The notes below the pieces were generated by a model. The model saw nothing but the letters and a program-made list of their open reading frames with translations, was not told where the DNA came from and did no database searches. Of a stretch of 64,000 bases of DNA, positions 13,401 to 46,343 are shown piece by piece (position 1 is the stretch's first letter; each line of letters begins with the position of its first letter). Position numbers and translations under genes: made by a program. Source of the DNA: Ruminococcus flavefaciens (GTDB taxonomy: Bacteria > Bacteroidota > Bacteroidia > Bacteroidales > P3); contig JAMPAI010000003.1 in NCBI GenBank assembly GCA_023667315.1, forward strand, positions 1-64,000, read 5' to 3'.

Positions 13401-15905
13401 GGCCACGGTAAGCGTATCCACATAAATGGCGTGATTGTGTTCCACGGCAGCCAATGTGCCGACAGGCGTAAATCTGCGAAGATTCTGGCTGGTGATGTCC
13501 AGCTTGCCGAGCACATTCTCCAACACATCTTCCACATTGATGGCATCGTATCCGGCGGTAGCGTTAAGGAGCAACATGGAGGCACCGTTATCCTTGTCGA
13601 TGTCCTGCACCCAGATTCGGTTGTTGTAACTGTCCTTATGGGTTACTACCATCTTGCCTTTTACGCGGTAGTGAACGTTCGTTTCGCTGCTATACAGACC
13701 TGCGAGCGTTTCCAGTTCCCGCACCTCGGTAGTGGTGGCCGTTACGGTAAACTTGTCGGTCATTGCGCCGTAGGTCAATGTGATGTCCACCGTTTCGGAG
13801 GTCTTGGCGCCGTTGTAGGAAACGGTGATTTCGGCACCGCCATCCGCCATCACCGCATCGCGGGTCAGTTCGGCAGGCGTTACGCTGAAATTACCTTCGG
13901 GACAGGCAATCGTTACCTTGTCGGTGGCTTCGGGTAGCGCCCAGCCGATTACCTTCATCTTGCCCTCCACGGACATGCCTTGGTAGGTGCCGGTAAGCGC
14001 CAGCGTTTTTTGCTCGAAATAAATGGAGGGATGTTTCACCTCGATGTTACGGTGAACATAGTGTCCCAAGTTAACCACCACCGTGTCATTGCCTTCACCC
14101 TCGGTCTTGGCTGTTACGTTCGCCAGATAGAGGTCGATATGATACTGGCCGTCTTCCAAACCGCTTATCACCACGGGAGAAGCCTTGGTGTAGAGGGTCT
14201 TGATGGCGGGGGCGGTGGAAGGATTTTCGATGTCGGTCTTCACTTCCACTTTCACTAATTTGCTGTCACCCAACTCGAAGTTGGTGGTGGTGAAGGCAAA
14301 TTCCACATCGCCCGAAAAAACTGCATCGTTGTCGGGTTCGGTAATGGTGAGCGAAGGCTGGTCGGCGGAAAGGGTGGTGAATGTGGCGCCCACGGGGTCG
14401 CTTTCGAAATCTTCTCCGCACAGCGACACAATCGAATATTCATATCTCGTTTCGGGGGTCAGTTCGGATGCCCATACAATCTGCGTGGCATCGGTCACCG
14501 TTACCGATTTTTCGTAGCCTTCGCCCTTTACGGTTACCTTGTAGCCGTTGGCGGGAGCCGGGTCCGGAGCGTTCCACACAATCGTAACGTCGTTCTGGCG
14601 GGGCGTCACCCCACCGTCGGCCGGCACCGTTACCGCATTGCAGACAGGGGTGGCAGCCTCTTGATAGATTTTTACATCGTCTATGTAATAGCGTTTTTTT
14701 GATGCTGCACTAAATTCCACAACCGTAGCCGTGGTTCCGCCATCAAAATCCAACTTATATGTCGTTTTTGTAGTTGTGAGAGTCTGCGTCTTGGAGGCGG
14801 TTCCACCCTTGACCGTGGCTGAACTGCCATCACTGCCATATGAATAGGCCGCAAACTCCACGGTATAGAGTCCACCGTTCCCACTTAAATCAAGTGCCGG
14901 CGTTTTGATGGAGCCTGCATTATTGCTACTTGCCAAACGGATTTCGCCTTCATTGCAATACACTTGCGTCAGCGTGGTATTCCATTTCGGTAATTGCGTT
15001 TTTGTTGCGCTGCCAGTTCCCGTGCAAGCGGTAAAATCGTCTTCAAAAAAGATGGTTTTATTTTCTACGGAGATATTCACCGTAACCGAGGAAAGTACGT
15101 CTTCGCCGTGCTTAATGGTGACAACACCGGTATAATTACCCTGTTTCAATGCTTCCTTTTCAGCCAATGTAAGCGTAAAAGCGGTTTCCGTTTGGGCCAC
15201 CGTTGTGGGTGAAGCCGTAAAGGGAGCATCGGCGTTTACCGAAACGGTCAAGGCTTGTTCAAGGGAACTTGCCTTAAAGGATAATGTTTCATTAAAGAAA
15301 TTACCCAATAATACAGAATAGTTTTTAGTGCTCGTTTTGGGGCTTACACTCGGAACGTTCGAAGCCGCAGCTTTTTTGTAAAGAAATACACCGTCTCCTG
15401 AATTGTCGGTATACATCCTAAAATCCTTATTCTGGTAGCACCTAAGCTTGCGCTTACTCCCTTGAATAACGGCCGCACCATCGTTTCCAATAGTTACCGA
15501 AAAATAGTCCGCTGTTTCTGAGGAAGGAGTGTTTGTGCTCGAAGTATTATCAGCCAAATAATTACCATTCACCAAATCGTGAAAAGCAAACTTACCTTCG
15601 TCATTTTTTAGAAGCGTGAACTCGCAAGCATTGCCCTTCGATGTGCTTGTTGCTATAGTCGGTTCGGTTATGGTTTCTCCACTAACGGACACCTGCACTG
15701 CTGTTCTTTTAGTGGAACTTTCCGTAGCCGTCATGGCATAACCGCCATCACCTACAATCAGCACCACATCATCGGCGCTTAATTCGGCCACGTCTTTCAC
15801 CAAGGTGTAGGTATCCTGTGCCGCCGCACGTCCGCCTGCAAACAGCAGGAGCGTCGAAGCACAGAGCATTGTTAGCAATGTTCGGAAAAAAACTTGCTTT
15901 TTCAT
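10473..15905 (-). CDS. Giant T9SS-secreted multidomain surface protein, paralog B
   Basis: An 1810-residue predicted surface protein, the longest of the three paralogs here. Signal peptide about 1-29 (ending GGRAAAQ), then an N-terminal beta domain (about 30-190) and a BACON-like domain. After these come a jelly-roll segment (about 290-420), FN3, BACON-like, an OB-fold-like module (HYRVKGKMVVTHKDSYNN) and FN3. A chitobiase C-terminal-like segment (about 1120-1200), a second jelly roll, BACON and OB-fold set (YKVSGKVVVTAMDNNYRN), FN3 and the type A T9SS sorting domain (IYPNPTSGLVYVELTE to KRVVVR) complete it. The extra length relative to paralog A appears to come from duplication of the jelly roll/BACON/OB set. 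The last 500 bp or so are almost identical to paralog A, indicating recent duplication or gene conversion. Binding partner unknown. Confidence 0.88.
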   Translation of the reverse strand: MKKQVFFRTLLTMLCASTLLLFAGGRAAAQDTYTLVKDVAELSADDVVLIVGDGGYAMTATESSTKRTAVQVSVSGETITEPTIATSTSKGNACEFTLLKNDEGKFAFHDLVNGNYLADNTSSTNTPSSETADYFSVTIGNDGAAVIQGSKRKLRCYQNKDFRMYTDNSGDGVFLYKKAAASNVPSVSPKTSTKNYSVLLGNFFNETLSFKASSLEQALTVSVNADAPFTASPTTVAQTETAFTLTLAEKEALKQGNYTGVVTIKHGEDVLSSVTVNISVENKTIFFEDDFTACTGTGSATKTQLPKWNTTLTQVYCNEGEIRLASSNNAGSIKTPALDLSGNGGLYTVEFAAYSYGSDGSSATVKGGTASKTQTLTTTKTTYKLDFDGGTTATVVEFSAASKKRYYIDDVKIYQEAATPVCNAVTVPADGGVTPRQNDVTIVWNAPDPAPANGYKVTVKGEGYEKSVTVTDATQIVWASELTPETRYEYSIVSLCGEDFESDPVGATFTTLSADQPSLTITEPDNDAVFSGDVEFAFTTTNFELGDSKLVKVEVKTDIENPSTAPAIKTLYTKASPVVISGLEDGQYHIDLYLANVTAKTEGEGNDTVVVNLGHYVHRNIEVKHPSIYFEQKTLALTGTYQGMSVEGKMKVIGWALPEATDKVTIACPEGNFSVTPAELTRDAVMADGGAEITVSYNGAKTSETVDITLTYGAMTDKFTVTATTTEVRELETLAGLYSSETNVHYRVKGKMVVTHKDSYNNRIWVQDIDKDNGASMLLLNATAGYDAINVEDVLENVLGKLDITSQNLRRFTPVGTLAAVEHNHAIYVDTLTVADCHARIATVQNALVCVENVAFTQSGEFTANKTYTYPMAQGRDTLDFYTTFTGADYMGQSIPAEILNVTGILGIYKDKAQITARNKADMAGAPCVEPVPLEATAQSYSATIRWTSKAAADSVRYSLNVDMSEAVKAKVSGVEKAYRIENLLTPATKYYFQVKSLCSATQESEWSDVKEFTTKAATDPTIAIELPTSMQEFTDSVTVRVYVRNVRNLGVSDNDTAIRITFSNGVVVKTADTLTKHALPTGEYTVEAELVKGETALPGVDKAERRFSVNLPDVEAPVFAPGAGRYTDSVEVTLACGTDGASIFYAKGDEAFVAYTEGAKIVLKETATLKAFATKERMDTSATVTATYTIAEGIAIEGDLVLFEDFSKSETASTTAITDFDKIADVSGWSGANMYPEVNEIKGGTSSKGGKLVSPALNLSHDNGKYYVVFTARAFDNAKDATTIRLIAGEDTVSVEGLDKTKMSEYVYMFTNGMADMKITFEAVNAANNRFYLDSIRVYQVLPQVPTIMAPANMTVATFQGVSVSKEVTVKGKLLDADVTVACNAPNFTVAPATLAKADVMGEGAVVTVTFNGNKTLDTAEITFTSGDLTETMKVYASAEEVVTVASLSELCKGTQGKIYKVSGKVVVTAMDNNYRNYKWIQDEHAGIMIDDATALVQNTYAVGDGIEGVYGRLGNYKGQLQLAMVGNLPEASSHGNAITPIEVSAADLKAGIDTLCSRVVKLTGLELESAEGVWAVATTYKALQGDADVNVRTILENADFLGEALPQGVFDLVGLAAVENNTVRVAPRSKADIIEQEGSECAAPTGLKVTIDNEAETATASWKGAASEYKVVLLDAKNSKDTVEQLSVKTKSYTFKAVKPNVEYAWAVASVCEDGDHWTKGQDFTIKKVANEGMEQVVAGIYPNPTSGLVYVELTESARMEIFTAGGLVVRTAELTAGKNELMLNQSGIYFIRLSNAKGSIVKRVVVR

Positions 15906-16007
15906 GGTATTAGGTTTTGGGGTTAATTACAATAATCCGTCAACTAATGTAAAAGCGTGTTTCGGTCAAAGTTTGTGCTTCGGGGAAGCAGCGCTTTTGT
16001 AATCCTA

Positions 16008-16055
16008 CAAAAATAACAATATGAAGCAAGTTAAAAAAGAGATAGTTATTAACAG
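16008..16055 (-). promoter_or_regulatory. Promoter and upstream motif of paralog B
   Basis: -7 box TATTTTTG (16015-16008) with downstream GTAGGATT and the motif CTGTTAATAA (16055-16046) 30 bp upstream. Long parts of the intervening sequence match the promoter of paralog A. The leader is about 100 nt. Confidence 0.65.
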
Positions 16056-16133
16056 GCTGTTGATTACGGGAGGAGTGATTTTATTAAATCCTTATATGGT
16101 GTAATTCTGTCCTTGCTTAGGTTGAGCGATATT

Positions 16134-16412
16134 TTACTTTTTGTACAACTCCGCGTGGGTGCCGGTACGAACCAGTCTTACCACTTTTATTTTTGACTCT
16201 ATATCATAAATCAACAGCCAATCGGGAGATATATGGCAATCCCAAAATCCTTTCCAATTACCGGACAACTTATGAGGGATATATTTCTTGTCAACTTGAC
16301 CGTTTTGGGCTAACTGTTCAAGCACTTCTTCCAAACGTTTTCGAGGAAGGCCTTGTTTGTCGGCTCTCTTAAGGTCTTTCTTGAACTGTGTGGTATAATC
16401 GAGTGCAAACAT
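16134..16412 (-). CDS. YafQ/RelE-family toxin of a type II toxin-antitoxin module
   Basis: A 92-residue protein resembling YafQ-type ribosome-dependent mRNA interferases. It contains FKKDLKRADKQGL near the N terminus, the core HKLSGNWKGFWDCHISPDW with LLIYDI, and the C-terminal RTGTHAELYKK, whose His corresponds to the catalytic His of YafQ. It would cleave mRNA at the ribosome unless bound by the antitoxin. The frame is open further upstream, but the ATG at 16412 is chosen because it overlaps the antitoxin stop (TAATG, 1-base overlap), typical of coupled TA genes. The module lies between two T9SS paralogs. Confidence 0.88.
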   Translation of the reverse strand: MFALDYTTQFKKDLKRADKQGLPRKRLEEVLEQLAQNGQVDKKYIPHKLSGNWKGFWDCHISPDWLLIYDIESKIKVVRLVRTGTHAELYKK

Positions 16413-16810
16413 TAGCCGAGGATTTGTTTTATAAGATCTTTGGGAGATTTCGCATGAAACACCCGTCCGGCCCGTGCATCGGCCATCGCCTTTATTGTGC
16501 ATGCATTCGGCTTATATTCGCCACCTTTCGCCTTGCTTACCCGCTGTTTTGCAAACCTATTCGTAACCTTTATGGAGGCCGTTGGGCTCACCTTGGCGTT
16601 TGCCGATTTGGTCTTGGCAACTTTGAGGGTTGCCAAGTTTTTTTCTTTCTTGATGTCGGGCAGTTCCCAGCCCCGCACCTTGGCCAGGTCCTCCACAAAC
16701 GACTTATCTTTCGCGGGCACCACATATTGCACCAGGCAACCTCTCGCGATGCCTCTCCGCCCGTAAACAGGTTCCGGCTCCGCCGCTATCATTTTTTTAG
16801 TTTTCATCAT
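16412..16810 (-). CDS. Antitoxin with atypical long basic linker
   Basis: A 132-residue protein directly upstream of, and overlapping, the toxin gene. The C terminus (ACTIKAMADARAGRVF then AKSPKDLIKQIL) looks like the toxin-neutralising tail of RelB/DinJ-type antitoxins. The segment LVQYVVPAKDKSFVEDLAKV followed by RGWEL resembles the short N-terminal domain of many Bacteroidales antitoxins and is not an obvious ribbon-helix-helix. Between these is a Lys/Ala/Ser-rich linker of about 45 residues, making the protein longer than usual for this class. The ATG at 16810 (first of two consecutive ATGs) is chosen; an open frame continues to 16918 but would contain the predicted promoter and operator. 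Identification rests on position and the C-terminal pattern. Confidence 0.75.
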   Translation of the reverse strand: MMKTKKMIAAEPEPVYGRRGIARGCLVQYVVPAKDKSFVEDLAKVRGWELPDIKKEKNLATLKVAKTKSANAKVSPTASIKVTNRFAKQRVSKAKGGEYKPNACTIKAMADARAGRVFHAKSPKDLIKQILG

Positions 16811-16832
16811 GATGTGTTTTATCGGGAAAAAT

Positions 16833-16886
16833 CTCAACCCATCTTTGAGCCTCAAATATACACATTCCTCTCCACACCTCCCCAAA
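16833..16886 (-). promoter_or_regulatory. Promoter and likely operator of the toxin-antitoxin operon
   Basis: On the minus strand a -7 box TATATTTG (16860-16853) has a possible -33 TTTG (16886-16883) 22 bp upstream. The palindrome TTTGAGCCTCAAA (16844-16856) overlaps the -7 box, and a further CTCAA half-site lies at 16833-16837. Autorepression by the antitoxin at such a site is the usual arrangement and is inferred here. Confidence 0.55.
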
Positions 16887-16941
16887 AACTTACTGTCAAC
16901 GGTTGGTTTTCCACGCAACCAGAGTTCACGAGGGACATAAA

Positions 16942-16969
16942 AAAGGGGCGTCCGGATGGACGCCCCTTT
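16942..16969 (-). terminator. Terminator of paralog C
   Basis: Perfect 12-bp stem AAAGGGGCGTCC / GGACGCCCCTTT with a GGAT loop, 23 bases after the stop of the gene at 16993. On the minus strand it is followed by TTTTATG. Confidence 0.8.
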
Positions 16970-16992
16970 CAGTCGGTCAAAGACCGGAATCT

Positions 16993-19900
16993 TTACCTTA
17001 CCACCACGCGCTTAACGATGGAGCCCTTGGCGTTGGAAAGGCGGATAAAGTAGATGCCGCTGTGGTTGAACATCATTTCGTGCTTGCCTGCGGCAAGCTC
17101 GGACCTGCGAACGATGGCGCCGGAAACCGTAAAGATTTCCATGCGTACGTTTTCGGTAAGTTCAACGTAAACCAAGCCGCTGGTGGGGTTGGGATAAACT
17201 CCGGCTACCACATGGTCCATGGCGCGGTTGGCCGTGGTGTCGGGGGTATCGCCGCCCGGTTCGGTAATGATATCGTCTTTGGTGCGGGGCGAAACCTGAA
17301 CGGTGCCGTTATACACCCCGGCAAGGGCGATAAGGTCGAATTCGCCTTCGGGCTTGTCTTCGCCCACAAAGTTACCGTAGCGGACAAAGGTGCGGATAAT
17401 GATGGTGTCTTTGCCGTCGCTGGCGGTGTCGTTGGCGTTACCGGCCCACTGGCCTTCGGCATTGTTCAGCGTCAAGCCATTGATGCGAACCAGACGCGAG
17501 CAATATTTTTCGATGCTGTCGTTCAGGTCGGCAATCGTAACCACTTCGGGCGTAACCGTGTTGTTGTGCGAACTGGCGGCGGGGAAATCGCCGATCGGTT
17601 CCAGCTGAAGCTGACCACCGTTGTTGCTCAACTTGCCGCAGATGCCGGTAAGGCCGTCGCCCACTTCGTATTGGGTGGTTACCAAACGGTCCTTGTCGAA
17701 AATCTGGATACCGGCCTTGTCGTCCTGGAACCATTTGTAGTTGTAGTTCGAATCTTTGGCGGTAAGGATCACTTCGCCCTTGATTCGGTAGATAACGCCC
17801 TGTTCGCTTTCGTAAAGGGCGGCCAGGTTGTCGAGTTCCTCAATCGCCGTGGCGGTGGCCTTTACCTTAACCAGCTTCGTTACATTGCCGCTCGAAAGGG
17901 TAAGCGGCACGCTGTCGGCAAGTTTGGCACCGTTGTAGGTTACGGTAAGTTCGGCACCGTCGCCCATTACGGCCTCTTTGCTCAGGGTGGCGGGCGTTAT
18001 GCTGAAGTTGCCTTCGGGATAGGTTACGGCAACGTCGGCGGCCAGCAGTTTACCTTTTACGGTAAGCTTTTGCGTTACGGCTACACCCTGATAGGTGGAC
18101 AATCTTACGGTGGAAGCCACGTTGATCATGGGTTCGTTGGGCAACACCTGATAGATGCGGATGCTGTCGAGGAAGAAACGGTTGTTGCTGGCCACGCCTG
18201 CTTCGAATCTGATTTTGGTTTCTTCCGTGCCGTTCTCAAATTCGAATACAAATTGCTTCAGCGTGGTAACCTCGTCGTTCTGCCCCGTGGTATTGGCAAG
18301 CCCCGATACCGTTACGGTTTCATCGCCGGCAATAAGGCGGATATTGTCTTTGTCGTTGTTCCAGGCAGCGGCATAGAACGACACCACATATTTGCCGTTG
18401 TTGGCGCTCAAGTCGATGGCCGGGCTTTCGAGAGAGCCGGGATTGTTGCTGGCTACACCCAAGCGGATAACGCCGCCACCGGGATGGCCATAAGCTTTCA
18501 CGGCCGTCCATCCGGGATTGTCAGTATAATCGTCCAGTTTTTCCGTGATTTCCGTGGCGGTGGCGGGCACCTTGTCGAAGTATTCTTCAAACACGATTTC
18601 GCCTTCAATCTTCACGGCAATCTGAATGGTGAGGGTCTTGACATAGCTGTCGCCCATGCCTTCCTTCACGGCAATGGCCTTGACGGTCGAGGTGCGGGCA
18701 ATGGTGATGGGCGCTTCGTATTTCGTGCTTTCCTTCGTGGGCGTGGAGCCGTCGAGGGTGTAATAAATCTCCGCACCCTCTGTGGCGCTCGTGATGGTAA
18801 GCTGCTGGGCATCGGCATACACGATGTCTTCTTCCAGGTTGAACACAGGGTCAGCCACCGCTTCAAGCAAGCGGATGATGTCGGAGAAATAGCGGGGCGA
18901 TACTTGAACGGTACCCTTGTTGATGCCCACTACGCAGACCAAATCGAAGGAATCGGTGGTCTTGGGCTGACCGATAAAGTCGCCGGTGCTGAGAGACGGA
19001 TAGATGACGATTTTGTTTCCATCGAGGTCTATGGCCGTGTCGGCTTTGGATTTAGTCCATTTTCCGTCGTTCGCATCCGCCGTCGTCAACATTAGCCTTT
19101 GGATTCTAACCAGTCTGGAGCAATAGGTGTTCATGTTGGCGACCGTCAATTGTTCGAGGGTAACCACCGTGGTGTCCACCTTGTTGTCATGCGAAACGGC
19201 TTCCGGCTGGGTTTCCGTGAATTTCACCTCGAGCAAGTCGTTGTAATTTTGGAGTTGTCCGTTCACATTGGCCACGGCATCGCCGATTCCATATTTGGGG
19301 AGAAGGGTTTTGGAACCATAGAGCAGCATGCCTCCGGTGGCATCCTGAATCCAGATGCTGGCGTTGGTGCTGATCGTGTCCATGGCCGATACAACGGCTT
19401 CGCCGGTCAGCTTAAAGTAGCCGTTGACAGCTCCTGCCCTGAGGTCGGCGATGGTGGCCACCTTAACCAATACATTCTTTACGGTGAAGTGGCGGACATC
19501 GGTGGCGCCTTCCACGGCGCTGTAGGTCTTGTTGTCGCCCTCGCCGCTCACGTTAACGAGCGAGTAGGTGGCGGTGTAGCTGCCGTTGCCCAATTCCACC
19601 GCGATAGAGGCGTCCTTGCTGTAGAGGGTGGTGTCTTTGGTGCCGTTGTTGATGACGAGCCTTACCATTTTGTCATCGCCCAGTTCAAAGTTGGCTACGT
19701 TCCAAGAGAAGGTGACGTCGTCGTTGAATACGGCGGCTTCAGCGGGCGCGGTGGCGGTAACCGAAGCGGCGTCGGCGGCCTGGGTGGTGAAGGTGCCGGT
19801 TACGGCATCGCCGGCCAGTTCGGCCGAGCAGAGGGCGGTAATCGAATAGGTGTATTCGGTGCCGGCCGTCAGTTGGCTAAGTTGCAGGAAGGTGGTCTTG

Positions 19901-20628
19901 ACCGTGTCGGCCGATACCTCTGCGGTGCCGTTCATAACCTTAACCGCATAGCCAAGGGCGGGTGCGGATTCGGGTGCCGTCCAGGAAAGCATGGCGGTGG
20001 TCTGCTGGGCAACCACGGCCGCATCGCTTACCTTGCCGCAAGAGGTAAGCACTTGCTTTTTGTAAATACAAAGGCTGTCTTGATTTGATGAGCTTTTGTA
20101 ACACGAAAACAATTTTGAAGAAACGTTATGTTTTAATTGATATGCATTTGAGTCGGCTGCCAAATTGATAGAGGCAATTCCACTGGCTTTGATCGAAATG
20201 GTCCATTCCGTAAAAACATTCGACAACTTTACATAATTGCTTGACTGATTATTGGAAGTGTTTGCAAGATATGTTTTTTCAGAATCAGAAATCTTATCTT
20301 CTATTGTGAAATTGCCATTTTCCAATTTTGTAATGACAAACTCATACGCGCTTTCTTTATCGCCGGCTTCTGTTGCGATATTTATGGAAATACCTCCCGC
20401 AACAATTTCTGTTTCAACTTGAGGCCTATTGTTTGTATTTTGATACCCCATGGCATATTTGCCATCTGAGCTTACAATTAAGTACGCCTTGCCCGACTCC
20501 AATTGTTCCAGAGATGTTATTTTTTCGTAAATACTCTGCGCTTGGAGCGATCCGCTTCCGAAGGCAAAGAAAACTGCGGGCAGCAGGCACAACGCCAACC
20601 TCCACAAGAAGTGTTTTGCACTTTTCAT
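16993..20628 (-). CDS. Large T9SS-secreted multidomain surface protein, paralog C
   Basis: A 1211-residue predicted surface protein. Signal peptide about 1-30 (ending SGSLQAQ) and a beta-rich N-terminal domain (GKAYLIVSSDGKYAMGYQN) related to that of paralog A. FN3 follows (about 190-275), then an OB-fold-like module (about 390-575), a chitobiase C-terminal-like segment (PTKESTKYEAPITIARTS), a jelly roll (about 675-830), BACON-like and a second OB-fold module (YRIKGEVILTAKDSNYNYK). It ends in a type A T9SS sorting domain (VYPNPTSGLVYVELTENV to KRVVVR). Unlike A and B it lacks the FN3 domain before the sorting domain. The N-terminal quarter (19.9-20.6 kb) is visibly more AT-rich than the rest. 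Ligand unknown. Confidence 0.88.
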   Translation of the reverse strand: MKSAKHFLWRLALCLLPAVFFAFGSGSLQAQSIYEKITSLEQLESGKAYLIVSSDGKYAMGYQNTNNRPQVETEIVAGGISINIATEAGDKESAYEFVITKLENGNFTIEDKISDSEKTYLANTSNNQSSNYVKLSNVFTEWTISIKASGIASINLAADSNAYQLKHNVSSKLFSCYKSSSNQDSLCIYKKQVLTSCGKVSDAAVVAQQTTAMLSWTAPESAPALGYAVKVMNGTAEVSADTVKTTFLQLSQLTAGTEYTYSITALCSAELAGDAVTGTFTTQAADAASVTATAPAEAAVFNDDVTFSWNVANFELGDDKMVRLVINNGTKDTTLYSKDASIAVELGNGSYTATYSLVNVSGEGDNKTYSAVEGATDVRHFTVKNVLVKVATIADLRAGAVNGYFKLTGEAVVSAMDTISTNASIWIQDATGGMLLYGSKTLLPKYGIGDAVANVNGQLQNYNDLLEVKFTETQPEAVSHDNKVDTTVVTLEQLTVANMNTYCSRLVRIQRLMLTTADANDGKWTKSKADTAIDLDGNKIVIYPSLSTGDFIGQPKTTDSFDLVCVVGINKGTVQVSPRYFSDIIRLLEAVADPVFNLEEDIVYADAQQLTITSATEGAEIYYTLDGSTPTKESTKYEAPITIARTSTVKAIAVKEGMGDSYVKTLTIQIAVKIEGEIVFEEYFDKVPATATEITEKLDDYTDNPGWTAVKAYGHPGGGVIRLGVASNNPGSLESPAIDLSANNGKYVVSFYAAAWNNDKDNIRLIAGDETVTVSGLANTTGQNDEVTTLKQFVFEFENGTEETKIRFEAGVASNNRFFLDSIRIYQVLPNEPMINVASTVRLSTYQGVAVTQKLTVKGKLLAADVAVTYPEGNFSITPATLSKEAVMGDGAELTVTYNGAKLADSVPLTLSSGNVTKLVKVKATATAIEELDNLAALYESEQGVIYRIKGEVILTAKDSNYNYKWFQDDKAGIQIFDKDRLVTTQYEVGDGLTGICGKLSNNGGQLQLEPIGDFPAASSHNNTVTPEVVTIADLNDSIEKYCSRLVRINGLTLNNAEGQWAGNANDTASDGKDTIIIRTFVRYGNFVGEDKPEGEFDLIALAGVYNGTVQVSPRTKDDIITEPGGDTPDTTANRAMDHVVAGVYPNPTSGLVYVELTENVRMEIFTVSGAIVRRSELAAGKHEMMFNHSGIYFIRLSNAKGSIVKRVVVR

Positions 20629-20737
20629 TTTATTGGTTTTGATGTTTTTATCTTATCTTCAATATCTTACAATCTTAAAGAAGACATCCGTATCTCTCCC
20701 TGAAGCCCGCTCTGTGGACGACTCTTTTAAAATCCTA

Positions 20738-20785
20738 CAAAAGTAGCGATATAAAACAAGTTGGGAAAGGAATACTTATTAACAG
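20738..20785 (-). promoter_or_regulatory. Promoter and upstream motif of paralog C
   Basis: -7 box TACTTTTG (20745-20738) followed by GTAGGATT, and CTGTTAATAA (20785-20776) exactly 30 bp upstream. This is the third copy of the arrangement seen in front of paralogs A and B, with more substitutions between the two conserved elements. Confidence 0.65.
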
Positions 20786-20833
20786 ATTCTTGTTTTTGGT
20801 GGATAACTCCGGGAGAAGGGGAGGATTTCTTTG

Positions 20834-21646
20834 CTACTGTTCGAACTTCCCCTCTTTAAAGTATTCGTATAAAAAGAGAGGGAACGAATTTAAGACAGAA
20901 ACCTGGCAGGGTTGTTTTTCCACATATTTCCGCAATTGATTCGTGTAGATATCCGCTTGGGCTATCAAACGCTTGTCCACGGGAAACTTTTCAGATCCTT
21001 GACACAGATAATGGGCTTTCCCGACATTCATGCGCACCAAATGACTCCAATTTTGTTGAACATTATCCATTCGTTCGGAGGGACAATCGGCATTACCTTT
21101 CAAACACCGATCGGGAAGTTCGATGTAATCCAAAGACTTATAGAAAGAAAATTCCCGTGCCGACCTTTTGAAGCCACGGCATGCCGACCTTTCAACAACA
21201 TAGCGGCTATAATCCGTGTCGGGCAATTCTTTCGTATAACATATCGATTCCAGCATCGGGTAATGAATATACAACTTGCCGTTGCCCGTTTCATCGTCAA
21301 AATACGCCAACATTTTCCGCACCCGCTCGTTGTTTTCTCTCAAGGTACCGGTCTTTTGTTGAAAATCGTAATCGAAAAACAGGTATATGTCCGAAATATC
21401 GGCATCCTGCACGTTCTCCAAAGATGTGTCGTTCCGTTCCTTTAATATATCCTTAAGTACGGCAAGCGTATTGCCGTCGTGCGACGTGTGTCCGAAAGTG
21501 TCGTATGCCTCCAGCTTCCGATACAGATCATAGATGTCGCTCCGATAGATACAAATGGACGAATCTTTTCTTCCCTCAAAGAAAAGATTCAGCAAGGTAT
21601 CGAATATCTTCGAATCTCTTTTGCCTTCAAACACAAATAACGTCAT
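20834..21646 (-). CDS. TOPRIM-like effector paired with an AAA ATPase (candidate defence protein)
   Basis: A 270-residue protein that I cannot assign to a named family. The N terminus MTLFVFEGKRDSKIF places a Glu (residue 7) and an Asp (11) like the first acidic motif of TOPRIM/OLD-type nucleases. IYLFFDYDFQQ (about 88-97) has a DxD like the second. YPMLESICY follows, similar in character to other ATPase-associated TOPRIM proteins. The start ATG at 21646 overlaps the ATPase stop by four bases (ATGA), so the two are translated together. Two-gene ATPase plus TOPRIM systems such as PARIS (AriA/AriB) and AbiL-type modules are known antiphage systems; assignment to either is inference. Base composition is AT-richer than neighbouring housekeeping genes, suggesting transfer. 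Confidence 0.6.
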   Translation of the reverse strand: MTLFVFEGKRDSKIFDTLLNLFFEGRKDSSICIYRSDIYDLYRKLEAYDTFGHTSHDGNTLAVLKDILKERNDTSLENVQDADISDIYLFFDYDFQQKTGTLRENNERVRKMLAYFDDETGNGKLYIHYPMLESICYTKELPDTDYSRYVVERSACRGFKRSAREFSFYKSLDYIELPDRCLKGNADCPSERMDNVQQNWSHLVRMNVGKAHYLCQGSEKFPVDKRLIAQADIYTNQLRKYVEKQPCQVSVLNSFPLFLYEYFKEGKFEQ

Positions 21647-22740
21647 ACCCGAAACGCGTTTCCACGAAACAATTTCTCGATATTGTGTCCAAAGCGCAAT
21701 TCCTTTTCCGTACACTCGTTGAGTGGCTTTATCTTGTTGTCGTCAAGGATAAAGTTGCAGTCGGGACGCAAGAGGTCGTTCGTCATTAAAAATGTGTTGT
21801 GCGAACTGGTATAAACCTGACAATCGAGGTTAAATAATCTCTTGCAGACTTCGAGCGACAGTTTGAAATGATAGAAAGCATCGAATTCATCGATAAACAC
21901 GAACGAGGTTTCACTCATTTTCTTCAACCAATAGTAGAGCAACATCAACGAACGGGTTCCGGTAGAAGCTACATCGTTGAAAGGAATTAATGTCCCTCCA
22001 ATATTGCAAAGCAATTGTTTATTCACAGCATCGGGTTCGAATTGAAATGTTTGCTCGCTTATATCTTGCAAGAACTTAGAAAAATCGTTCAATAAGTCAT
22101 TGGAAATGATATATTCGTCTATGATCGTAACTCCTGTTTCAAGTCCGATATATTCGCGTACATCCAGATTCCGAAACCACAGCATGGAACCCACAAATTG
22201 CTGGAGTTTCATCAGATAATTGTCTTTGTCCAACGGGTACGAGGTCAGCAGGAAATTCACAATCGAAACGTTGTTGTCGTTGTTCTGCAGGTTCAACTTG
22301 ACATTCTTGTCCATCGGGAATGTCTTGTTGTTTATTGTAAATGTTTCTGTCTGCCTTTTGAATATATTTTTTCCGTCAACTTGCAACTGTTCGGCAATCA
22401 AGGCTCCGTTGTGGTTTTTCGAGTAGTTGTATGCAACTATTTGTTTGCCGAAGCGGAAGGTGTATTCAAAAGCGACAGGCTCTTCTGGATTCCTCGCACA
22501 AACGAAGTTTCGATAGTAATCGCCTTTTTTATTCTTTTGACTCAGATGATTCTCGATATCGAAAATCGCCAAACCGAAATTGGTTTTTCCCGAGCCGTTG
22601 GGGCCATAGATAATACCGTTTTTAACCACCCCGTCTTTGATGGCATAGGTGTTGAATTCATAATTTCCCGCTTTAGTCAAATCCCATTCGATTCTCTTGG
22701 CGAATCCCCGGTAGTTGGTAACGGCAAATTTGATTAACAT
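21643..22740 (-). CDS. AAA_15/COG1106-like ATPase (candidate defence protein)
   Basis: A 365-residue ATP-binding protein of the SMC/ABC-like AAA_15 type. N terminus MLIKFAVTNYRGF, Walker A GPNGSGKT (46-53), a signature-like segment STGTRSLMLLYYW (about 259-271), Walker B VFIDEFDAFYHF (281-292) and a switch SSHNTFLMTN (about 312-321). The frame is open upstream, but the ATG at 22740 is chosen because GGAGG lies 4 bases upstream (complement of 22745-22749), a rare strong Shine-Dalgarno here, and because the family N terminus starts there. It overlaps the downstream TOPRIM-like gene by 4 bases. The ATPase is expected to sense or regulate, with the partner as effector; this is inferred from known ATPase/TOPRIM systems. 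Confidence 0.78.
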   Translation of the reverse strand: MLIKFAVTNYRGFAKRIEWDLTKAGNYEFNTYAIKDGVVKNGIIYGPNGSGKTNFGLAIFDIENHLSQKNKKGDYYRNFVCARNPEEPVAFEYTFRFGKQIVAYNYSKNHNGALIAEQLQVDGKNIFKRQTETFTINNKTFPMDKNVKLNLQNNDNNVSIVNFLLTSYPLDKDNYLMKLQQFVGSMLWFRNLDVREYIGLETGVTIIDEYIISNDLLNDFSKFLQDISEQTFQFEPDAVNKQLLCNIGGTLIPFNDVASTGTRSLMLLYYWLKKMSETSFVFIDEFDAFYHFKLSLEVCKRLFNLDCQVYTSSHNTFLMTNDLLRPDCNFILDDNKIKPLNECTEKELRFGHNIEKLFRGNAFRV

Positions 22741-22744
22741 TGAA

Positions 22745-22809
22745 CCTCCATATTTACGTAAACTCCGCAAATATAGGTAAAAATCCATTATTCCGTAAAA
22801 AAATTACGG
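22745..22809 (-). promoter_or_regulatory. Promoter, ribosome binding site and operator-like dyad of the ATPase/TOPRIM operon
   Basis: On the minus strand: -33-like TTTA (22799-22796), 20 bp spacer, -7 box TATATTTG (22775-22768), and a strong Shine-Dalgarno GGAGG (22749-22745). A perfect dyad CCGTAA-AAAAA-TTACGG (22793-22809) covers the -33 element, a position suited to a repressor. Confidence 0.6.
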
Positions 22810-22859
22810 CAATTAGTGTTGTGTCATCCAAGAATCCTTATTGCCATTTCTCTGATTGC

Positions 22860-23783
22860 CTATTTATGGCGTATGTCCACGCCCCACATCAGTTTTTCGC
22901 GGATGGCGTCGAAGAAGTTGCGGTCGGGTGGGTAGATGGCGATGAACTTGAAGCCCGCCTTGCGGATCTTGAAACTGAACGGGCCGGCAAACTCCACCAT
23001 GGCCGAGTCAAGCATGACCCGGCATCCCTTGTTGCCCCTTGTCTTTACCATGATTTCCTGATAGCCTTCCAAAATGAGCGGCCGCACGGTAAGGGTATGG
23101 GAGGCGATGGGCGTAACCAGCATATTGTCGGCAGAGGGTATCAGGATGGGGCCTCCGCAACTCAGCGAATAGGCGGTGGAGCCGGTGGGGGTCGAGAACA
23201 GCACCCCGTCGCCGTAGTAGGTGTTCATGAACTGGCCGTCCACGAACACGTCTAACAGCACCAGCGGCGAGGCGTCGTTCTTATACACCGTCACTTCGTT
23301 GAGCGCGTAGGGGAACGCAAAGGGATTCTCGTTTTCCTGCTCGCCGTAAAAATCGAACTCGTCCGCTTCCAGAACCAGGCGGTTCTCGCGGCGGAAATGG
23401 TCGAAAAAGCCGGGTTGCAGCTGCGTCTTGATGCCGTCGGCGTTGAGCGCGTTCAAAAAGCCCAGACGGCCGAAGTTGATGCCTAATACGGGAACACTGG
23501 TGTCTTTTACGAGATGCAGGGTGTCGAGCATCGTGCCGTCACCGCCCAGGCACACGAGCAGGTCGGTGTCATCGGGCAGCTCGTCGGTGTAGATGCGGTC
23601 GGGTTCGTCCAGGTAGCGGGCGGCGAGCGAGGGAAAGTCCCTGCGCATGCGCTCCGACAGGTCTTGGGCGAAGTAGAACCTTGCCGGCTCCTCCCAAGTC
23701 TGGTCGAGCACCGAGAGCAGTTCCTCGAACATGCTCAATTCCACCAACTTGGCGGCTATACCGTAAAAGGCGATTTTCTTCAT
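22860..23783 (-). CDS. nadK: NAD kinase
   Basis: Phosphorylates NAD to NADP. The protein has 307 residues. It contains the family motif GGDGTMLDTL (about 84-93) for nucleotide binding and the conserved region GVLFSTPTGSTAYSLSCGG (about 190-208). The frame is open upstream, but the ATG at 23783 (MKKIAFYGIAAK) is chosen because it gives the family N terminus and lies directly after the stop of the upstream T9SS cargo gene (1 base between them). It is therefore probably co-transcribed with that gene. The convergent or downstream limit is not marked by a clear terminator; the promoter of the ATPase/TOPRIM operon lies 100 bp further on. Confidence 0.94.
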   Translation of the reverse strand: MKKIAFYGIAAKLVELSMFEELLSVLDQTWEEPARFYFAQDLSERMRRDFPSLAARYLDEPDRIYTDELPDDTDLLVCLGGDGTMLDTLHLVKDTSVPVLGINFGRLGFLNALNADGIKTQLQPGFFDHFRRENRLVLEADEFDFYGEQENENPFAFPYALNEVTVYKNDASPLVLLDVFVDGQFMNTYYGDGVLFSTPTGSTAYSLSCGGPILIPSADNMLVTPIASHTLTVRPLILEGYQEIMVKTRGNKGCRVMLDSAMVEFAGPFSFKIRKAGFKFIAIYPPDRNFFDAIREKLMWGVDIRHK

Positions 23784-23784
23784 G

Positions 23785-26700
23785 CTAACGTTTGATGAGT
23801 TTGCGCGTGGCTGCCTTGCTGTTGCCGGCACCCCGTACCATATACACGCCCGGCCTCAGATCCTGCAGGGAAAGCCTGATCCTTTCCTGTCTTTGCAGCA
23901 CCAGATGGCGGCAGACACGTCCCTGCATATCGAAAATATACAGGCTCGTGGCCTGTTCGGGAATCAGGATTTCCACGAAATCGGCGGCCGGGTTGGGCTG
24001 GATGCGGAACTCGTTTAGGGCGAACGTGCCGATGCCCGTGGTGTCGGTACCCGTCGTATCCACCGGCTTTTCCTTTATTTTCGCTTCCAGCCAGAGGCTG
24101 TCCACACGGAAGGTTCCCCCTACGGGAAGGTTCACGCATTCGATGCCGAACGCATATACTCCCAAGGCGCTGATTTCTATCTCTTTTTCGAGCGTATTCA
24201 CACCCAGGGCCTCCTGTTCGTCCACCAGGCGCGAGCCTGCGATGCTGTTGTTGCCGTAGGCCAGCAGGTTCAGCTTAACCGTGGCGCCGGCGGCATTGGT
24301 GGCGTCGTAACGGTAGCGCAGCAGATAGGTGCCGGTGGAATCCGGCTCAAAGCAGGCGGACATGCGCGGCGAACCCACCACGCTGATGTTCGCGTCCCTG
24401 AACGGTACCGTTTGCGGGCTGTGCACGCTGAAACTTGTCCGGACCGTATCATCGCGGCGATCCAATTCCTCCTTAAGACCCAACCAGACTTCAACCGTAT
24501 GTTCGCCGCCGGAGAACATGGGCATGGGCAGCGAAACGGTGTATTCCTCACCGTCCATCATTTCCTTTTGGAAGGAAATGTCCTGCGCAGGTCCGTTGTC
24601 GTAGCGGATATGGGTTGTAACATTTTCCGGCATCGAGAAACCGCCCGCCGTAACCTTAAACGAGAGGCGACCTATCGCCATCGTATCGCATTCCGACATA
24701 TTGCCCGAAACGTGCAGGTCGGAAACGCGGTAGTCGGTGGAATTGGTCTGCAGGCTGTCCACCAGAATAAAGTCGTCTATGTACAGCGGCGCCGTATTGC
24801 CGCCCAGTTCGGCCTTGAGGCTGAGGAATGCCGCGCCTGTTTCGGGAAACCTTATATAGGCGTAGAGAAAATCGTATTCGGTGGAGGCAGGTTGCGGAAA
24901 TACGGCGAGTTGATTGAGGAAGCCCGTGTTGTCGTAGCGGTTGTAGGCGTAGAAAAGGCGCAGGCTATCGTTGGTGCCGATATTGTTGGCATCGCGTTTA
25001 TAGAAGAAAGACACCCGGTAGGTCTTGTCTTTTTCAACCTTCAGCAGGGGCGTTACTAAAAAGTCGGAAATTTCCGAAGAACCCACGTTGCATTTTGCCG
25101 CCCATTCGCCCGAATGGGCCGTTTCCGTGCCGAACTGCATCTGCCAAACCCGTCGGGCCGACGGATACGACTGCCAGTCGTCCATCGATTTTTCGGCGAA
25201 TTTTTCCACGAAAGGCAGTTCCCGTGCCAGAACCTTGGAAACCGTAACGGTTACCGTATCGGGAACTTCGTCCGAACCGGTCTTTTCCGCCCAGAACCTT
25301 ACCGTCTGCGTGCTTTCGCTGTTAAAGGAGGCTCGCCTGTTGAACGTATAGGTGGAACTTACCTGCGACAAGAGGTTGGATGCGGGCGTTTCCCGGCACA
25401 CTTCCTCATCATCGATCTGATAGCAGTACCTTATGTCCTTGGCTTCCACGGTATTCGAGGAGAAGTTGCGCACGGTCATTCCGAGGCTTACCGTAAGGCC
25501 GAAGCGGGCTTCGTACGGAACGTCGGCATACAGGGCGTGTACGGAGAACCTTTCCCGCGCTCCCAGCGAAACGTTATCTACAAAAACGGTATAGTTTTCC
25601 AAGGCCTGCGGGTCGGTTACAATGTCGTTTACCTCCGTTACGTTGCGGATCGAAAGTATATGATAACCGCTTTCTTCCACGGCAAACACGCAACGCACCG
25701 TATCGTAAGTGCTGCCGCTAACGGATTTCCTGCCCTTGATCCCTGTCTGTCCCTCATACGCCAGGTCGTAGCGTGGGCCTTCGCGCTGCACATAATATTC
25801 CAGGGCTCCGGAATTCGACGAGCTCATCTTGGTACGGAAATTCAGGTAGTAGTCTTTTCCCGATTCAAGGTAGAAGGGCTTGAACACCATCCAGTCGTCG
25901 GCTTTTGTCGCGCCCTGCTTGCCGGGAATCCCTATCGAACGGGCGGAATAGATGCTGTTGAAGCCCGAATTCTCGCCGTACAACGCCCAGCCGCCGGGGG
26001 TACCGGCCTCCTTGGAAAGGTTACCGTCGTAATCGATAAAGTCGAGGTTCTGTCCCACCAGGTATTGCGGGTCGTCGCTCGAAGTTCCGTCAAAATCGAA
26101 GAAGTAATCCATCGTGTTGGTGTCGGCTTGCGAAACGGTTATCCGTTTTATCTGCAGACTGCCTTCGGAAGACGGTCCGTAGGCATGAAAGGCCAATGCG
26201 CGATTGGCGTCATCCTTGGCGAGGTAATACACCACCATGCTGCGGTCGCTCCGGTCTTCGAAACGGTCTTGTTTCCAAATCAGTTCCTTAGCCGGGAGGT
26301 TATCCCGACCGGCATTCAGGCAGGCATAGAGCGCCAGCGACTTGTAGCCCGCCAACTCAGACCTGAAGGTGAACTCCACACGGTACAGCTTGTCTTTCTT
26401 GAACGAAAACTGCGGAGAAACCAGATAGTCGTTGTTATTGTAGCCGTTCTGCCTAACGGTCGAAACCACCGGATAACAGTGGGTACCTTCCTGCACAAAA
26501 CGCCAGTTCGGTTCGGCATAGAACGAATCACTGATCATCGCCCATGCATACGGCACCGCCTCGGTAAATTCGTACCGGGCAGGCAAGGTGGCGATGCCCG
26601 AACTGCCGACCCTTACCCAACACGACACCGTATCGTTGCTCCGATCCAAATCGGCGGCCTCGTCAACCCAGAAACTGAGGCGATGGTCGCCCGGCTGAAG

Positions 26701-27621
26701 ATCGGGTAGGGTCTTGAATGTAATGCGGCTAATCTTGTCTGAGGCGATTTCCTGCGAAAAGCTTTCCTTTACGGCCGTGCCGCCATCCACCGAGTAACAG
26801 GCCTCGAAGTTCCTTACCGTACCTCCGCCACGGTTCATCACAAAGGCCGAAAAAGCCTGCGTGCCGGCCTGCGGGTCGGTATAGGGACTTATAATCTGGC
26901 CAGCCGCCAGATCCGTGCCTACGATTTCGTCTATCTGCAGCCCGGTAAGGTAGAATTTCTCCCCGTTCTTGGTGTTCTTGGTGTTGGCGTAAAGGTTATC
27001 GATAATGATGAACGAGATGCAGTAATCCCCGCTTTCGGGAATCAGGTCGGAGGAAATGTGGTAGGTGTAGGTGGAGTCTCCCGCCTTGGGCATCTTGCCT
27101 TCGTTATGAATCAGCACGCTGCGCACCTTGCCGTTGGCGTCTTTTATCGGGTCGGGCGTGTTGTAATACACCCCCCATTTGCCGCCGTAATACGGTTCTC
27201 CGTCTATCACCGAATGCAGGCGCACCACCAGATGCTTGCCCGAGGTGAGGTTGATGTTTTTGTAGTCCGCACGGACGGTATAGCTTGTGTTGTCGTCTTT
27301 TTCCAAGTGAAAAATCGGGCTGAACGCAGCCGGCTCGATGGTTGCGGCATCATCGTTGTCGGTAAAACATGCGGCCAGATTTTCGCCGGAAACCGCAGAA
27401 AATCCCCATCGGTCGGATGCCACCACCACGGATTCGGTACCGCCGCCATCCTGAATAGCCTTGAATTTCCAGTAGTCATTATGCGCGCCGGGCGCTGTTG
27501 TCGTGCCGAAATCGGCCGTATAGGGAAATGTGGAGATGGCGGGATTCTGCGCGAACGCACCCCAAATCAAGAGCAAACCTAAACCTAAAACGGTCAAGAT
27601 TTTTTCTGCTGAATTTTTCAT
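23785..27621 (-). CDS. T9SS-secreted surface protein with repeated jelly-roll modules
   Basis: A 1278-residue predicted surface protein. Signal peptide about 1-24 (ending WGAFA). It contains several repeated beta-sandwich segments, each with a pattern like YLVSPQFSFKKDKLYRVEFT (about residue 400), WMVFKPFYLESGKDYYLNF and FLVTPLLKVEKDKTYRVSFF. This is typical of jelly-roll modules in secreted Bacteroidota adhesins and peptidases. CARDB-like segments (DRSNDTVSCWVRVG, HTVEVWLGLKEELDRRDDTV) alternate with them. It ends with a type A T9SS sorting domain (FRIQPNPAADFVEILIPEQA to KAATRKLIKR). It is not closely related to the three paralogs upstream in the window. nadK follows after one base. Function beyond surface display is unknown. 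Confidence 0.85.
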   Translation of the reverse strand: MKNSAEKILTVLGLGLLLIWGAFAQNPAISTFPYTADFGTTTAPGAHNDYWKFKAIQDGGGTESVVVASDRWGFSAVSGENLAACFTDNDDAATIEPAAFSPIFHLEKDDNTSYTVRADYKNINLTSGKHLVVRLHSVIDGEPYYGGKWGVYYNTPDPIKDANGKVRSVLIHNEGKMPKAGDSTYTYHISSDLIPESGDYCISFIIIDNLYANTKNTKNGEKFYLTGLQIDEIVGTDLAAGQIISPYTDPQAGTQAFSAFVMNRGGGTVRNFEACYSVDGGTAVKESFSQEIASDKISRITFKTLPDLQPGDHRLSFWVDEAADLDRSNDTVSCWVRVGSSGIATLPARYEFTEAVPYAWAMISDSFYAEPNWRFVQEGTHCYPVVSTVRQNGYNNNDYLVSPQFSFKKDKLYRVEFTFRSELAGYKSLALYACLNAGRDNLPAKELIWKQDRFEDRSDRSMVVYYLAKDDANRALAFHAYGPSSEGSLQIKRITVSQADTNTMDYFFDFDGTSSDDPQYLVGQNLDFIDYDGNLSKEAGTPGGWALYGENSGFNSIYSARSIGIPGKQGATKADDWMVFKPFYLESGKDYYLNFRTKMSSSNSGALEYYVQREGPRYDLAYEGQTGIKGRKSVSGSTYDTVRCVFAVEESGYHILSIRNVTEVNDIVTDPQALENYTVFVDNVSLGARERFSVHALYADVPYEARFGLTVSLGMTVRNFSSNTVEAKDIRYCYQIDDEEVCRETPASNLLSQVSSTYTFNRRASFNSESTQTVRFWAEKTGSDEVPDTVTVTVSKVLARELPFVEKFAEKSMDDWQSYPSARRVWQMQFGTETAHSGEWAAKCNVGSSEISDFLVTPLLKVEKDKTYRVSFFYKRDANNIGTNDSLRLFYAYNRYDNTGFLNQLAVFPQPASTEYDFLYAYIRFPETGAAFLSLKAELGGNTAPLYIDDFILVDSLQTNSTDYRVSDLHVSGNMSECDTMAIGRLSFKVTAGGFSMPENVTTHIRYDNGPAQDISFQKEMMDGEEYTVSLPMPMFSGGEHTVEVWLGLKEELDRRDDTVRTSFSVHSPQTVPFRDANISVVGSPRMSACFEPDSTGTYLLRYRYDATNAAGATVKLNLLAYGNNSIAGSRLVDEQEALGVNTLEKEIEISALGVYAFGIECVNLPVGGTFRVDSLWLEAKIKEKPVDTTGTDTTGIGTFALNEFRIQPNPAADFVEILIPEQATSLYIFDMQGRVCRHLVLQRQERIRLSLQDLRPGVYMVRGAGNSKAATRKLIKR

Positions 27622-27747
27622 GACTATTTCTGGAAATTAAGTTAATACCGCGCGAAGTTACTAAATTATCGCTACTTGAACCGCATCTGTCAAATATTGA
27701 AGAATGATTTTGCGGGAGAACCCCCGCAGTTGGCTGATTCCGGAAAC

Positions 27748-28000
27748 AAAAACGCGTTTTGAATGGCGAGATGCGAGACGAAAGCCTAAGTGGAAGGCGG
27801 GAGTTTACTTTAGTACGTGACCGAGATAAACTTTGGCTGACAACGCAGCAGAAGCCCGACCATCATAGAAAGAAAAACGCGTTTTGAATGGCGAGATGCA
27901 AGACGAAAGCCTAAGTGGAACGCGGGAGCTTACTTTAGTAAGTGACCAAGTGCCACTTAGGCTTTCGGCGAAGCAGATCGCCGTTCAAAACGCGTTTTTG
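27748..28000. repeat. Intergenic direct and inverted repeat element next to tRNA-Ser
   Basis: A 75-bp unit beginning AAAAACGCGTTTTGAATGG is present at 27748-27822 and again at 27873-27947 with a handful of substitutions. The second copy continues into its own inverted complement: CCACTTAGGCTTTCG pairs with CGAAAGCCTAAGTGG, and CGCCGTTCAAAACGCG pairs with the start of the unit with one mismatch. 27873-28000 can therefore fold into a long hairpin. An inner hairpin CTTAC-TTTA-GTAAG is also present. The element ends one base before the tRNA-Ser. It looks like a full plus a partial copy of a repeated extragenic palindrome or MITE-like element. Confidence 0.75.
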
Positions 28001-28087
28001 CGGAAAGAGGGGGATTCGAACCCCCGGTAGGGAAACCCCTACGACAGTTTAGCAAACTGTTGGTTTAAGCCACTCACCCATCTTTCC
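28001..28087 (-). tRNA. tRNA-Ser (anticodon GCU)
   Basis: 87-nt type II tRNA on the minus strand: acceptor GGAAAGA (28087-28081) pairs with TCTTTCC (28008-28002), discriminator G. The anticodon arm ACAGT/ACTGT encloses a loop containing GCT. There is a long variable arm (GTAGGG...CCCTAC) and a T arm GGGGG-TTCGAAT-CCCCC. CCA is not encoded. Confidence 0.95.
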
Positions 28088-46334: not shown

Positions 46335-46343
46335 CCACTTACA

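What the first reader, a model, noticed from the sequence alone, without database searches (positions are those of the whole stretch)
20834..22740. Candidate undescribed two-gene antiphage system: AAA_15-like ATPase plus TOPRIM-like protein
An ATPase with full Walker A, signature-like and Walker B segments overlaps by four bases a 270-residue protein with TOPRIM-like acidic motifs (EGKRD and FDYD). ATPase/TOPRIM pairs include PARIS and AbiL-type defence systems, but the second protein does not match one I can name. The pair is AT-richer than its surroundings, has its own promoter with a strong Shine-Dalgarno, and lies next to a toxin-antitoxin module and a variable surface-protein array.
Basis: partly seen in the sequence, partly recalled or inferred. 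Interest (0 to 1): 0.72.

Follow-up and report, generated by a model that had tools for sequence, protein, structure and literature searches.

The report
Listed defence candidate with promoter palindrome
Two overlapping genes look like an anti-virus module that catalogues already list as an untested candidate, and relatives of it in distant bacteria carry the same 17-letter mirror-image DNA sequence in front, possibly the switch that controls it.

Summary
In detail: an ABC-type ATPase gene (21643-22740, minus) overlaps by 4 bp a 270-aa gene (20834-21646) with TOPRIM-like acidic motifs, at low GC. It is not undescribed: PADLOC lists both proteins as PDC-M12A (E 9e-133) and PDC-M12B (E 2e-64). 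The ATPase is AAA_21, not AAA_15. The partner fails the DUF4435 rule for PARIS and the RloB rule for AbiL/RloAB, but profile comparison links its EG…DxD core weakly to RloB. Homologous pairs sit on 4-kb plasmids, in Vibrio phages, inside a BREX locus and inside a type I R-M operon. New here: a 17-bp palindrome, CCGTAA-N5-TTACGG, overlaps the -33/-35 region of the pair's promoter in 80 of 83 upstream regions from four phyla (at most 2 mismatches of 12 fixed positions); its exact form occurs once in the 2.93-Mb genome. Best reading: an autorepressed toxin-antitoxin-like module; the ATPase holds a TOPRIM nuclease inactive until infection frees it, and the complex represses its own promoter. Binder, trigger, substrate and any anti-phage effect are inferred, untested.

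The parts
21643..22740 (-). PDC-M12A: OLD/RloA-like ABC ATPase, 365 aa (predicted sensor/antitoxin)
   Evidence: tree
20834..21646 (-). PDC-M12B: predicted TOPRIM-type nuclease (E7, D92, D94, E133 invariant), 270 aa
21643..21646 (-). ATGA start-stop overlap; the same -4 overlap in 74 of the 79 loci in which both genes were found
22793..22809 (.). 17-bp palindrome CCGTAAAAAAATTACGG (candidate operator); only exact match to CCGTAAN5TTACGG in the 2.93-Mb genome
22794..22799 (-). TTTACG, -35/-33-like hexamer inside the right arm of the palindrome
22768..22775 (-). TATATTTG, matches the Bacteroidota -7 box TAnnTTTG (motif recalled), 27 nt before the ATG
22745..22749 (-). GGAGG, Shine-Dalgarno-like, 4 nt before the ATG
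   Evidence: sequence

Best explanation
The pair is a PDC-M12 cassette: a self-contained, horizontally moving abortive-infection module built like a toxin-antitoxin pair. Protein A (ABC ATPase of the OLD/RloA kind) binds protein B, a metal-dependent TOPRIM-type nuclease, and keeps it inactive; a phage product disturbs A and frees B, which cuts nucleic acid (most likely RNA, perhaps tRNA as AriB does) and stops the infected cell. The A-B complex, or one of the two proteins, sits on the 17-bp palindrome over the -33/-35 region and keeps transcription low, so that activation also lifts repression. Shown here: family assignment, close pairing and overlap, invariant acidic residues, mobile and defence contexts, a recurring promoter box and palindrome. 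Inferred: TOPRIM fold, nuclease activity and substrate, inhibition of B by A, trigger, identity of the palindrome binder, repression rather than activation, and any anti-phage effect.
For: PADLOC: P0001 PDC-M12A 9.3e-133, AbiLi 2.3e-36, AriA 5.5e-16; P0002 PDC-M12B 2.2e-64. Five homologous pairs have PDC-M12A/B as best match, and the Fusobacterium B protein also matches AbiLii at 1.3e-5. A is found upstream of B in 79 of 80 loci (three of the A copies incomplete); in the 80th, L092, B starts 83 nt from the locus edge. B against RloB profile: 78-83%, E about 1e-5, aligning EG..E and DxD; NAD-kinase control 0.1%. Pfam RloB matches 15 of 70 members, best E 0.0011. Contexts: 4-kb plasmids, found in 9 of 5,426 E. 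coli genomes (7 with at least 80% of the query); Vibrio phages; BREX; hsdM-hsdS-[pair]-hsdR-like in L101. Palindrome: 80 of 83 upstreams with at most 2 mismatches, 67 exact; shuffled upstreams 0.24%; RloA upstreams 1 of 19. Precedents: AAA proteins neutralise TOPRIM_OLD toxins, one of them of the RloB node (PMC10440598, passages); AriA holds and frees the tRNase AriB (PMC12409363, sections 3 and 24); the PfiAT complex, but not its antitoxin alone, binds an N5-spaced pseudo-palindrome in its own promoter (PMC13048266, passages).
Against: No structure could be predicted. P0002 itself matches no Pfam family at E up to 10; the RloB link is weak and, at default settings, covers only residues 1-98. 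B against DUF4435 is 3-4%. Pfam and NCBIfam show no DNA-binding domain in A or B, so an own-protein repressor is indirect. The exact 17-mer also occurs in 64 of 69 viral-contig stretches without the pair, 34 of the 69 inside the ORF picked there by length (my count). With one mismatch the window has a second match at 16761. No single PADLOC family matches more than 5 of 76 downstream or 2 of 69 upstream immediate neighbours at E 1e-10; the share with any match was not obtained. A PARIS pair inside a Salmonella BREX island showed no activity against the phages tested (PMC11341690, passages), so embedding alone does not prove activity.
Confidence: 0.6

Rival explanations
1. Same cassette, but the palindrome is the site of a host regulator, or an activator site, rather than an autorepression operator.
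For: Neither A nor B has a recognised DNA-binding domain. Position alone cannot tell repression from activation.
Against: The same 17 bp, exact or nearly so, recurs before cassettes of Bacteroidota, Spirochaetota, Fusobacteriota and Pseudomonadota, and there is one exact copy in the window's genome, which does not fit a host regulon. No Pfam family matches more than 4 of 76 downstream or 2 of 69 upstream immediate neighbours (second neighbours were not scanned), so no third cassette gene is evident. The right arm overlaps the -35-like hexamer.
Confidence: 0.25
2. A DNA-cutting OLD/Gabija-like effector: B degrades or nicks phage or host DNA rather than RNA.
For: TOPRIM nucleases of OLD and Gabija are described as DNA-cutting (passages of PMC12839542, PMC12409363 and PMC10440598).
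Against: The two-gene architecture and the RloB likeness are nearer PARIS/AbiL; the separate-gene TOPRIM effector described in the sections read, AriB, is a tRNase. Sequence cannot decide.
Confidence: 0.3
3. A plasmid or element maintenance toxin-antitoxin pair with no role against phages.
For: Presence on tiny plasmids, TA-like overlap and a palindrome at the promoter.
Against: Embedding inside a BREX locus and a type I R-M operon, cargo of Vibrio phages, scattered chromosomal presence.
Confidence: 0.15

Closest known systems
PDC-M12 (PADLOC-DB 2.0.0 candidate system)
   Same: Both proteins match the A and B models over nearly their full length; homologues show the same order and 4-bp overlap.
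   Different: Nothing in kind; this is a Bacteroidota member. I found no statement of the palindrome or of the RloB likeness for PDC-M12: no held paper names it; the literature searches on regulation were limited.
AbiL / RloA-RloB
   Same: ATPase aligns with 23 RloA proteins over 344 columns (hhalign 99.7%); partner shares EG..E, DxD and, by a loose pattern, a later P-x-x-E.
   Different: PDC-M12A and RloA form separate supported groups; partner has no RloB match over the cut-off that was seen; of 19 RloA upstreams 1 has the palindrome, with 2 mismatches.
PARIS (AriA-AriB)
   Same: AAA_21 ATPase plus separate TOPRIM-like partner; weak AriA matches (profile 5.5e-16; solved AriA chain E 0.0056); ATPase against five ATPases beside DUF4435 genes 81.5% over 72 columns.
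   Different: Partner is not DUF4435, which the published detection rule requires (PMC9122126, passages).
AAA-neutralised TOPRIM_OLD toxin-antitoxin pairs (NetFlax)
   Same: Two-gene AAA plus TOPRIM_OLD architecture with neutralisation shown in assays (PMC10440598, passages).
   Different: Homology of those toxins to PDC-M12B was not tested here.

Membership tests
PDC-M12 | ATPase matches a PDC-M12A model | tested here: met
   E 9.3e-133, residues 1-364
PDC-M12 | Partner matches a PDC-M12B model | tested here: met
   E 2.2e-64, residues 1-269
PDC-M12 | Adjacent two-gene arrangement | tested here: met
   4-bp overlap
PDC-M12 | Anti-phage activity | not testable with these tools
   no experiment; 0 held papers name PDC-M12
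PARIS | AAA_15 or AAA_21 ATPase over cut-off | tested here: met
   AAA_21 52.8 bits, cut-off 27
PARIS | DUF4435 (PF14491) partner over cut-off | tested here: not met
   no Pfam match for P0002 at E up to 10; not among the 25 shown of 34 families matched by the 70 members; hhalign with five DUF4435 proteins 3-4%
AbiL / RloAB | RloB (PF13707) partner over cut-off | tested here: not met
   none for P0002; 15 of 70 members match at E up to 1, best 0.0011; hhalign 78-83%
AbiL / RloAB | RloA/AbiLi-type ATPase | tested here: inconclusive
   AbiLi profile 2.3e-36 and hhalign to RloA 99.7%, but the PDC-M12A model scores far better and the tree separates the groups
OLD / Gabija GajA | ATPase and TOPRIM in one polypeptide | tested here: not met
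   two separate genes
TOPRIM nucleases | Motif-I Glu and DxD | tested here: met
   E7, D92, D94 in 78 of 78
TOPRIM nucleases | TOPRIM fold | not testable with these tools
   structure prediction switched off
Autoregulated toxin-antitoxin module | Palindrome at own promoter | tested here: met
   80 of 83 upstreams
Autoregulated toxin-antitoxin module | Own protein binds the palindrome; B toxic, A neutralises | not testable with these tools
   bench work needed

The most novel reading that the evidence does not exclude
The ATPase-nuclease complex is itself a sequence-specific DNA-binding repressor: it sits on its own palindromic operator in resting cells, and the phage trigger that frees the nuclease also takes the complex off the operator, so that sensing, killing and induction are one event. 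The operator has stayed the same across four phyla because it co-evolves with the cassette, not with hosts.
Probability: 0.35. Interest if true: 0.75.

Novelty: new variant of a known kind. Interest (0 to 1): 0.52.

Why it matters
PDC-M12 is a listed candidate for which I found no mechanism. The link to RloB-type TOPRIM nucleases suggests a testable biochemistry, natural 4-kb E. coli plasmids give a ready test system, and an operator conserved over four phyla would be an unusual case of a defence cassette carrying its own portable switch. How ATPase/TOPRIM systems are held in check at the level of transcription is little known as far as I recall.

Tried and rejected
Undescribed system: rejected, PADLOC names it. 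PARIS membership: rejected on the partner. AbiL/RloAB membership: rejected on the partner cut-off; the tree separates the ATPases, though the program flags long branches and 10 of 47 inner branches as open. Solved-structure search with the partner profile gave SETD2 matches only, at E 0.49 or worse, taken as chance. PHROGs matches are of unknown function. NCBIfam gave nothing near a cut-off.

Palindrome as a general defence-regulon site: not supported. One exact site in the genome. With W at the five centre positions, 10 of 395 phylum genomes carry it: the two with a full-length partner (G000, G406), and 8 others with no match to PDC-M12A/B or RloA queries in the 3-kb locus; the reversed control pattern is found in 7 (my count). 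The third genome matched (G273, 26% over residues 80-151 inside a 1419-aa frame) lacks it; I take that match as spurious. Palindrome as an exclusive mark of the cassette: rejected, 64 of 69 viral-contig stretches lack the pair; by eye some of those lie before capsid-like or amidase-like phage genes. Leader-RNA hairpin: less likely, since the arms keep their sequence instead of covarying, AAAAA and TTTTT centres are both common (34 and 25), and the element lies upstream of the inferred start; the 119-nt gap folds at z -2.07. A second inverted repeat at 22749-22774 in the window is not among the best repeats printed for the other upstreams. The PDLC02981 search hit 198 of 198 genomes, presumably through generic ATPases, and was of no use. 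A viral-contig scan with the partner protein found no relative. Literature on regulation: one search matched 1,728 papers (10 listed; passages of three opened: none describes a palindrome for PARIS), one search matched 3 (of these PMC12707154 was opened), one search listed 20 of 150 (none new for PDC-M12).

Full report
What is there. Window 20834-22740 (minus strand) holds two overlapping genes: a 365-aa ATPase and a 270-aa partner joined by ATGA. The pair lies 119 bp downstream of an NAD kinase gene on the same strand and next to a 1211-aa protein with a type IX sorting tail. Its GC (0.41-0.43) and GC3 (0.52-0.54) are well below those of the NAD kinase (0.58 and 0.81). In four relatives of the genus (L016-L019) DNA similarity to window 12000-30000 starts at the end of the NAD kinase gene (22855-22863), with no match on the pair's side in the stretches fetched. 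In the closest (G004) trpS-, hflX- and miaA-like genes (named by eye) lie there instead; the window's genome has that DNA on another contig, and G004 has pieces similar to the window's surface-protein genes, but none to the pair, on another contig. So the pair sits at a break in gene order. The partner is found in 1 of 13 genomes of the genus, the window's own, and matched 3 of 395 of the phylum, the window's own included and the third match weak.

What it is. PADLOC-DB assigns the two proteins to PDC-M12A (9.3e-133) and PDC-M12B (2.2e-64), with weaker AbiLi (2.3e-36) and AriA (5.5e-16) matches for the ATPase. Pfam gives AAA_21 for the ATPase and nothing for the partner. The passages I read call PDC systems unpublished candidates (PMC11811056) or candidates found by guilt-by-embedding, most not yet validated (PMC12988326). 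A search for 'PDC-M12' found 0 papers in the held library.

Relatives. The ATPase gene is found in 79 of the 80, incomplete in L032, L044 and L061; in L092 the partner starts 83 nt from the locus edge. The overlap is exactly -4 in 74 of the 79; L058 and L079 join them if the start is set at the residue aligned to M1; L093 is -1, L102 +2, and L105 has an interrupted partner. Plasmid searches found 14 records, 9 of them Escherichia, all nine of 4.0-4.4 kb; two such small plasmids that I opened (E. coli, Raoultella) carry two other annotated genes each. Megablast found the E. coli version in 9 of 5,426 E. coli genomes, on plasmids only. Three Vibrio phage records carry it; the one opened is a filamentous phage. 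In a Fusobacterium record the pair lies directly after brxC and is followed, one gene on, by a methyltransferase gene that I take for pglX (Pfam Eco57I and MmeI). In L101 it lies between hsdS and an hsdR-like gene; in L040 and L045 it precedes type I and type III R-M genes. Flanks are diverse otherwise: the commonest PADLOC family matches 5 of 76 downstream neighbours and 2 of 69 upstream neighbours (one of 70 upstream neighbours, at a contig edge, was left out).

Partner protein. In 78 aligned homologues (window, 69 of the 80 loci, 7 others, and Fusobacterium) E7, G8, D92, D94, P130 and E133 are invariant. Profile comparison with 24 RloB proteins (of the 33 matches) gives 78-83% and E about 1e-5, aligning the EG..E and DxD segments, against 0.1% for the NAD-kinase control and 3-4% for five DUF4435 proteins (of 6 loci). 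The RloB consensus has SNPxFE where PDC-M12B has YPMxE; a loose pattern that takes the first DxD finds P-x-x-E a median of 38 residues on in both families, in 78 of 78 (34-82) and 17 of 24 (20-43), with no chance control. Fifteen of 70 members match Pfam RloB weakly. So a TOPRIM-type, RloB-like core is likely but unproven. The ATPase aligns with RloA over 344 columns (99.7%) and with five ATPases beside DUF4435 genes over 72 (81.5%). In a tree of 50 ATPases PDC-M12A (23), RloA (23) and AriA-like (4, so called for their DUF4435 neighbours) each form one side of a starred branch; long branches were flagged.

Promoter and palindrome. TAnnTTTG (a Bacteroidota -7 box, recalled) occurs within 120 nt upstream of the ATPase in 64 of 73 homologues, mostly 24-27 nt before the ATG, against 8 of 79 in-gene control stretches; the window has it 27 nt before the ATG, which alone would have a chance of 0.13. 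Upstream of it lies CCGTAA-N5-TTACGG. Of 83 upstream regions of up to 150 nt (window, 75 of the 80 loci, 7 others), 67 match all 12 fixed positions, 11 have one mismatch and 2 have two (the E. coli and Raoultella plasmids); L062, L065 and L084 do not match there. Shuffled upstreams reach two mismatches or fewer in 0.24%, and RloA upstreams in 1 of 19. L062 has an exact copy a little further off, 136 nt from the ATG; in all, 66 of the 80 loci (1.1 Mb together) hold an exact copy and none holds two. The element ends 34-87 nt before the ATG and, in the 64 of 80 cases where the -7 box follows, 13-18 nt before that box in 62 of them. Centres are AAAAA in 34 and TTTTT in 25 of 80. The Vibrio phage has it exactly, the Fusobacterium, Acinetobacter and Pectobacterium cassettes with one mismatch. 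In a 16-sequence alignment from four phyla the right arm TACGG is invariant while mean column identity is 31%. The window genome has one exact copy, at the pair. There the right arm gives TTTACG, 18 nt from TATATT. The simplest reading is a two-fold-symmetric protein site over the -33/-35 region, recognised by something that travels with the cassette; the only genes seen to travel with it are A and B. Many of the 83 come from related Bacteroidales, so they are not independent; the cross-phylum cases carry the argument.

Mechanism. By analogy with PARIS (ATPase holds AriB, trigger frees it, AriB cuts tRNA; PMC12409363, sections 3 and 24) and with AAA-neutralised TOPRIM_OLD toxins (PMC10440598, passages), A most likely restrains B. 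A toxin-antitoxin complex that binds an N5-spaced pseudo-palindrome in its own promoter, which its antitoxin alone does not, has been described for PfiAT (PMC13048266, passages); that is a precedent, not evidence for this pair. What B cuts, what triggers release and what binds the palindrome remain untested. A PARIS pair inside a Salmonella BREX island was inactive against the phages tried (PMC11341690, passages), a warning that embedding alone proves little.

Verdict.

Noticed in passing
window 16134-16810 (minus): YafQ-type toxin (Pfam E 3.2e-32) with a 132-aa upstream ORF, presumably its antitoxin but without a Pfam match; toxin GC 0.415, also AT-rich.
   Followed up: partly
window 6013-20628, 23785-27621, 43491-54615: Array of large secreted proteins; four of the five genes scanned (not that at 43491) have type IX secretion sorting tails, and those at 6-20 kb share similar C-terminal parts by eye.
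   Followed up: no
L124 (G000:C55:87252-87818) and G000:C77:43330-43836: The same genome has two further RloB-family matches; the one at C55 follows a 450-aa gene that grouped with the RloA ATPases.
   Followed up: no
L108, L110, L113, L115, L117, L126 upstream of RloA: Several RloA upstream regions hold other palindromes (for example TGAGAATTATTCTCA, TGCGTGAAAAGTTCACGCA), so palindromic promoter elements of different sequence may be common in ATPase/TOPRIM cassettes (not tested against chance).
   Followed up: no
L105:1114-1882: An interrupted PDC-M12B copy beside a full-length A gene: the ORF found is open only from the residue aligned to position 112.
   Followed up: no
L026 (NZ_CP084075.1): A 2.1-Mb Fusobacterium record, the size of a chromosome, is listed as a plasmid in the plasmid collection.
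   Followed up: no
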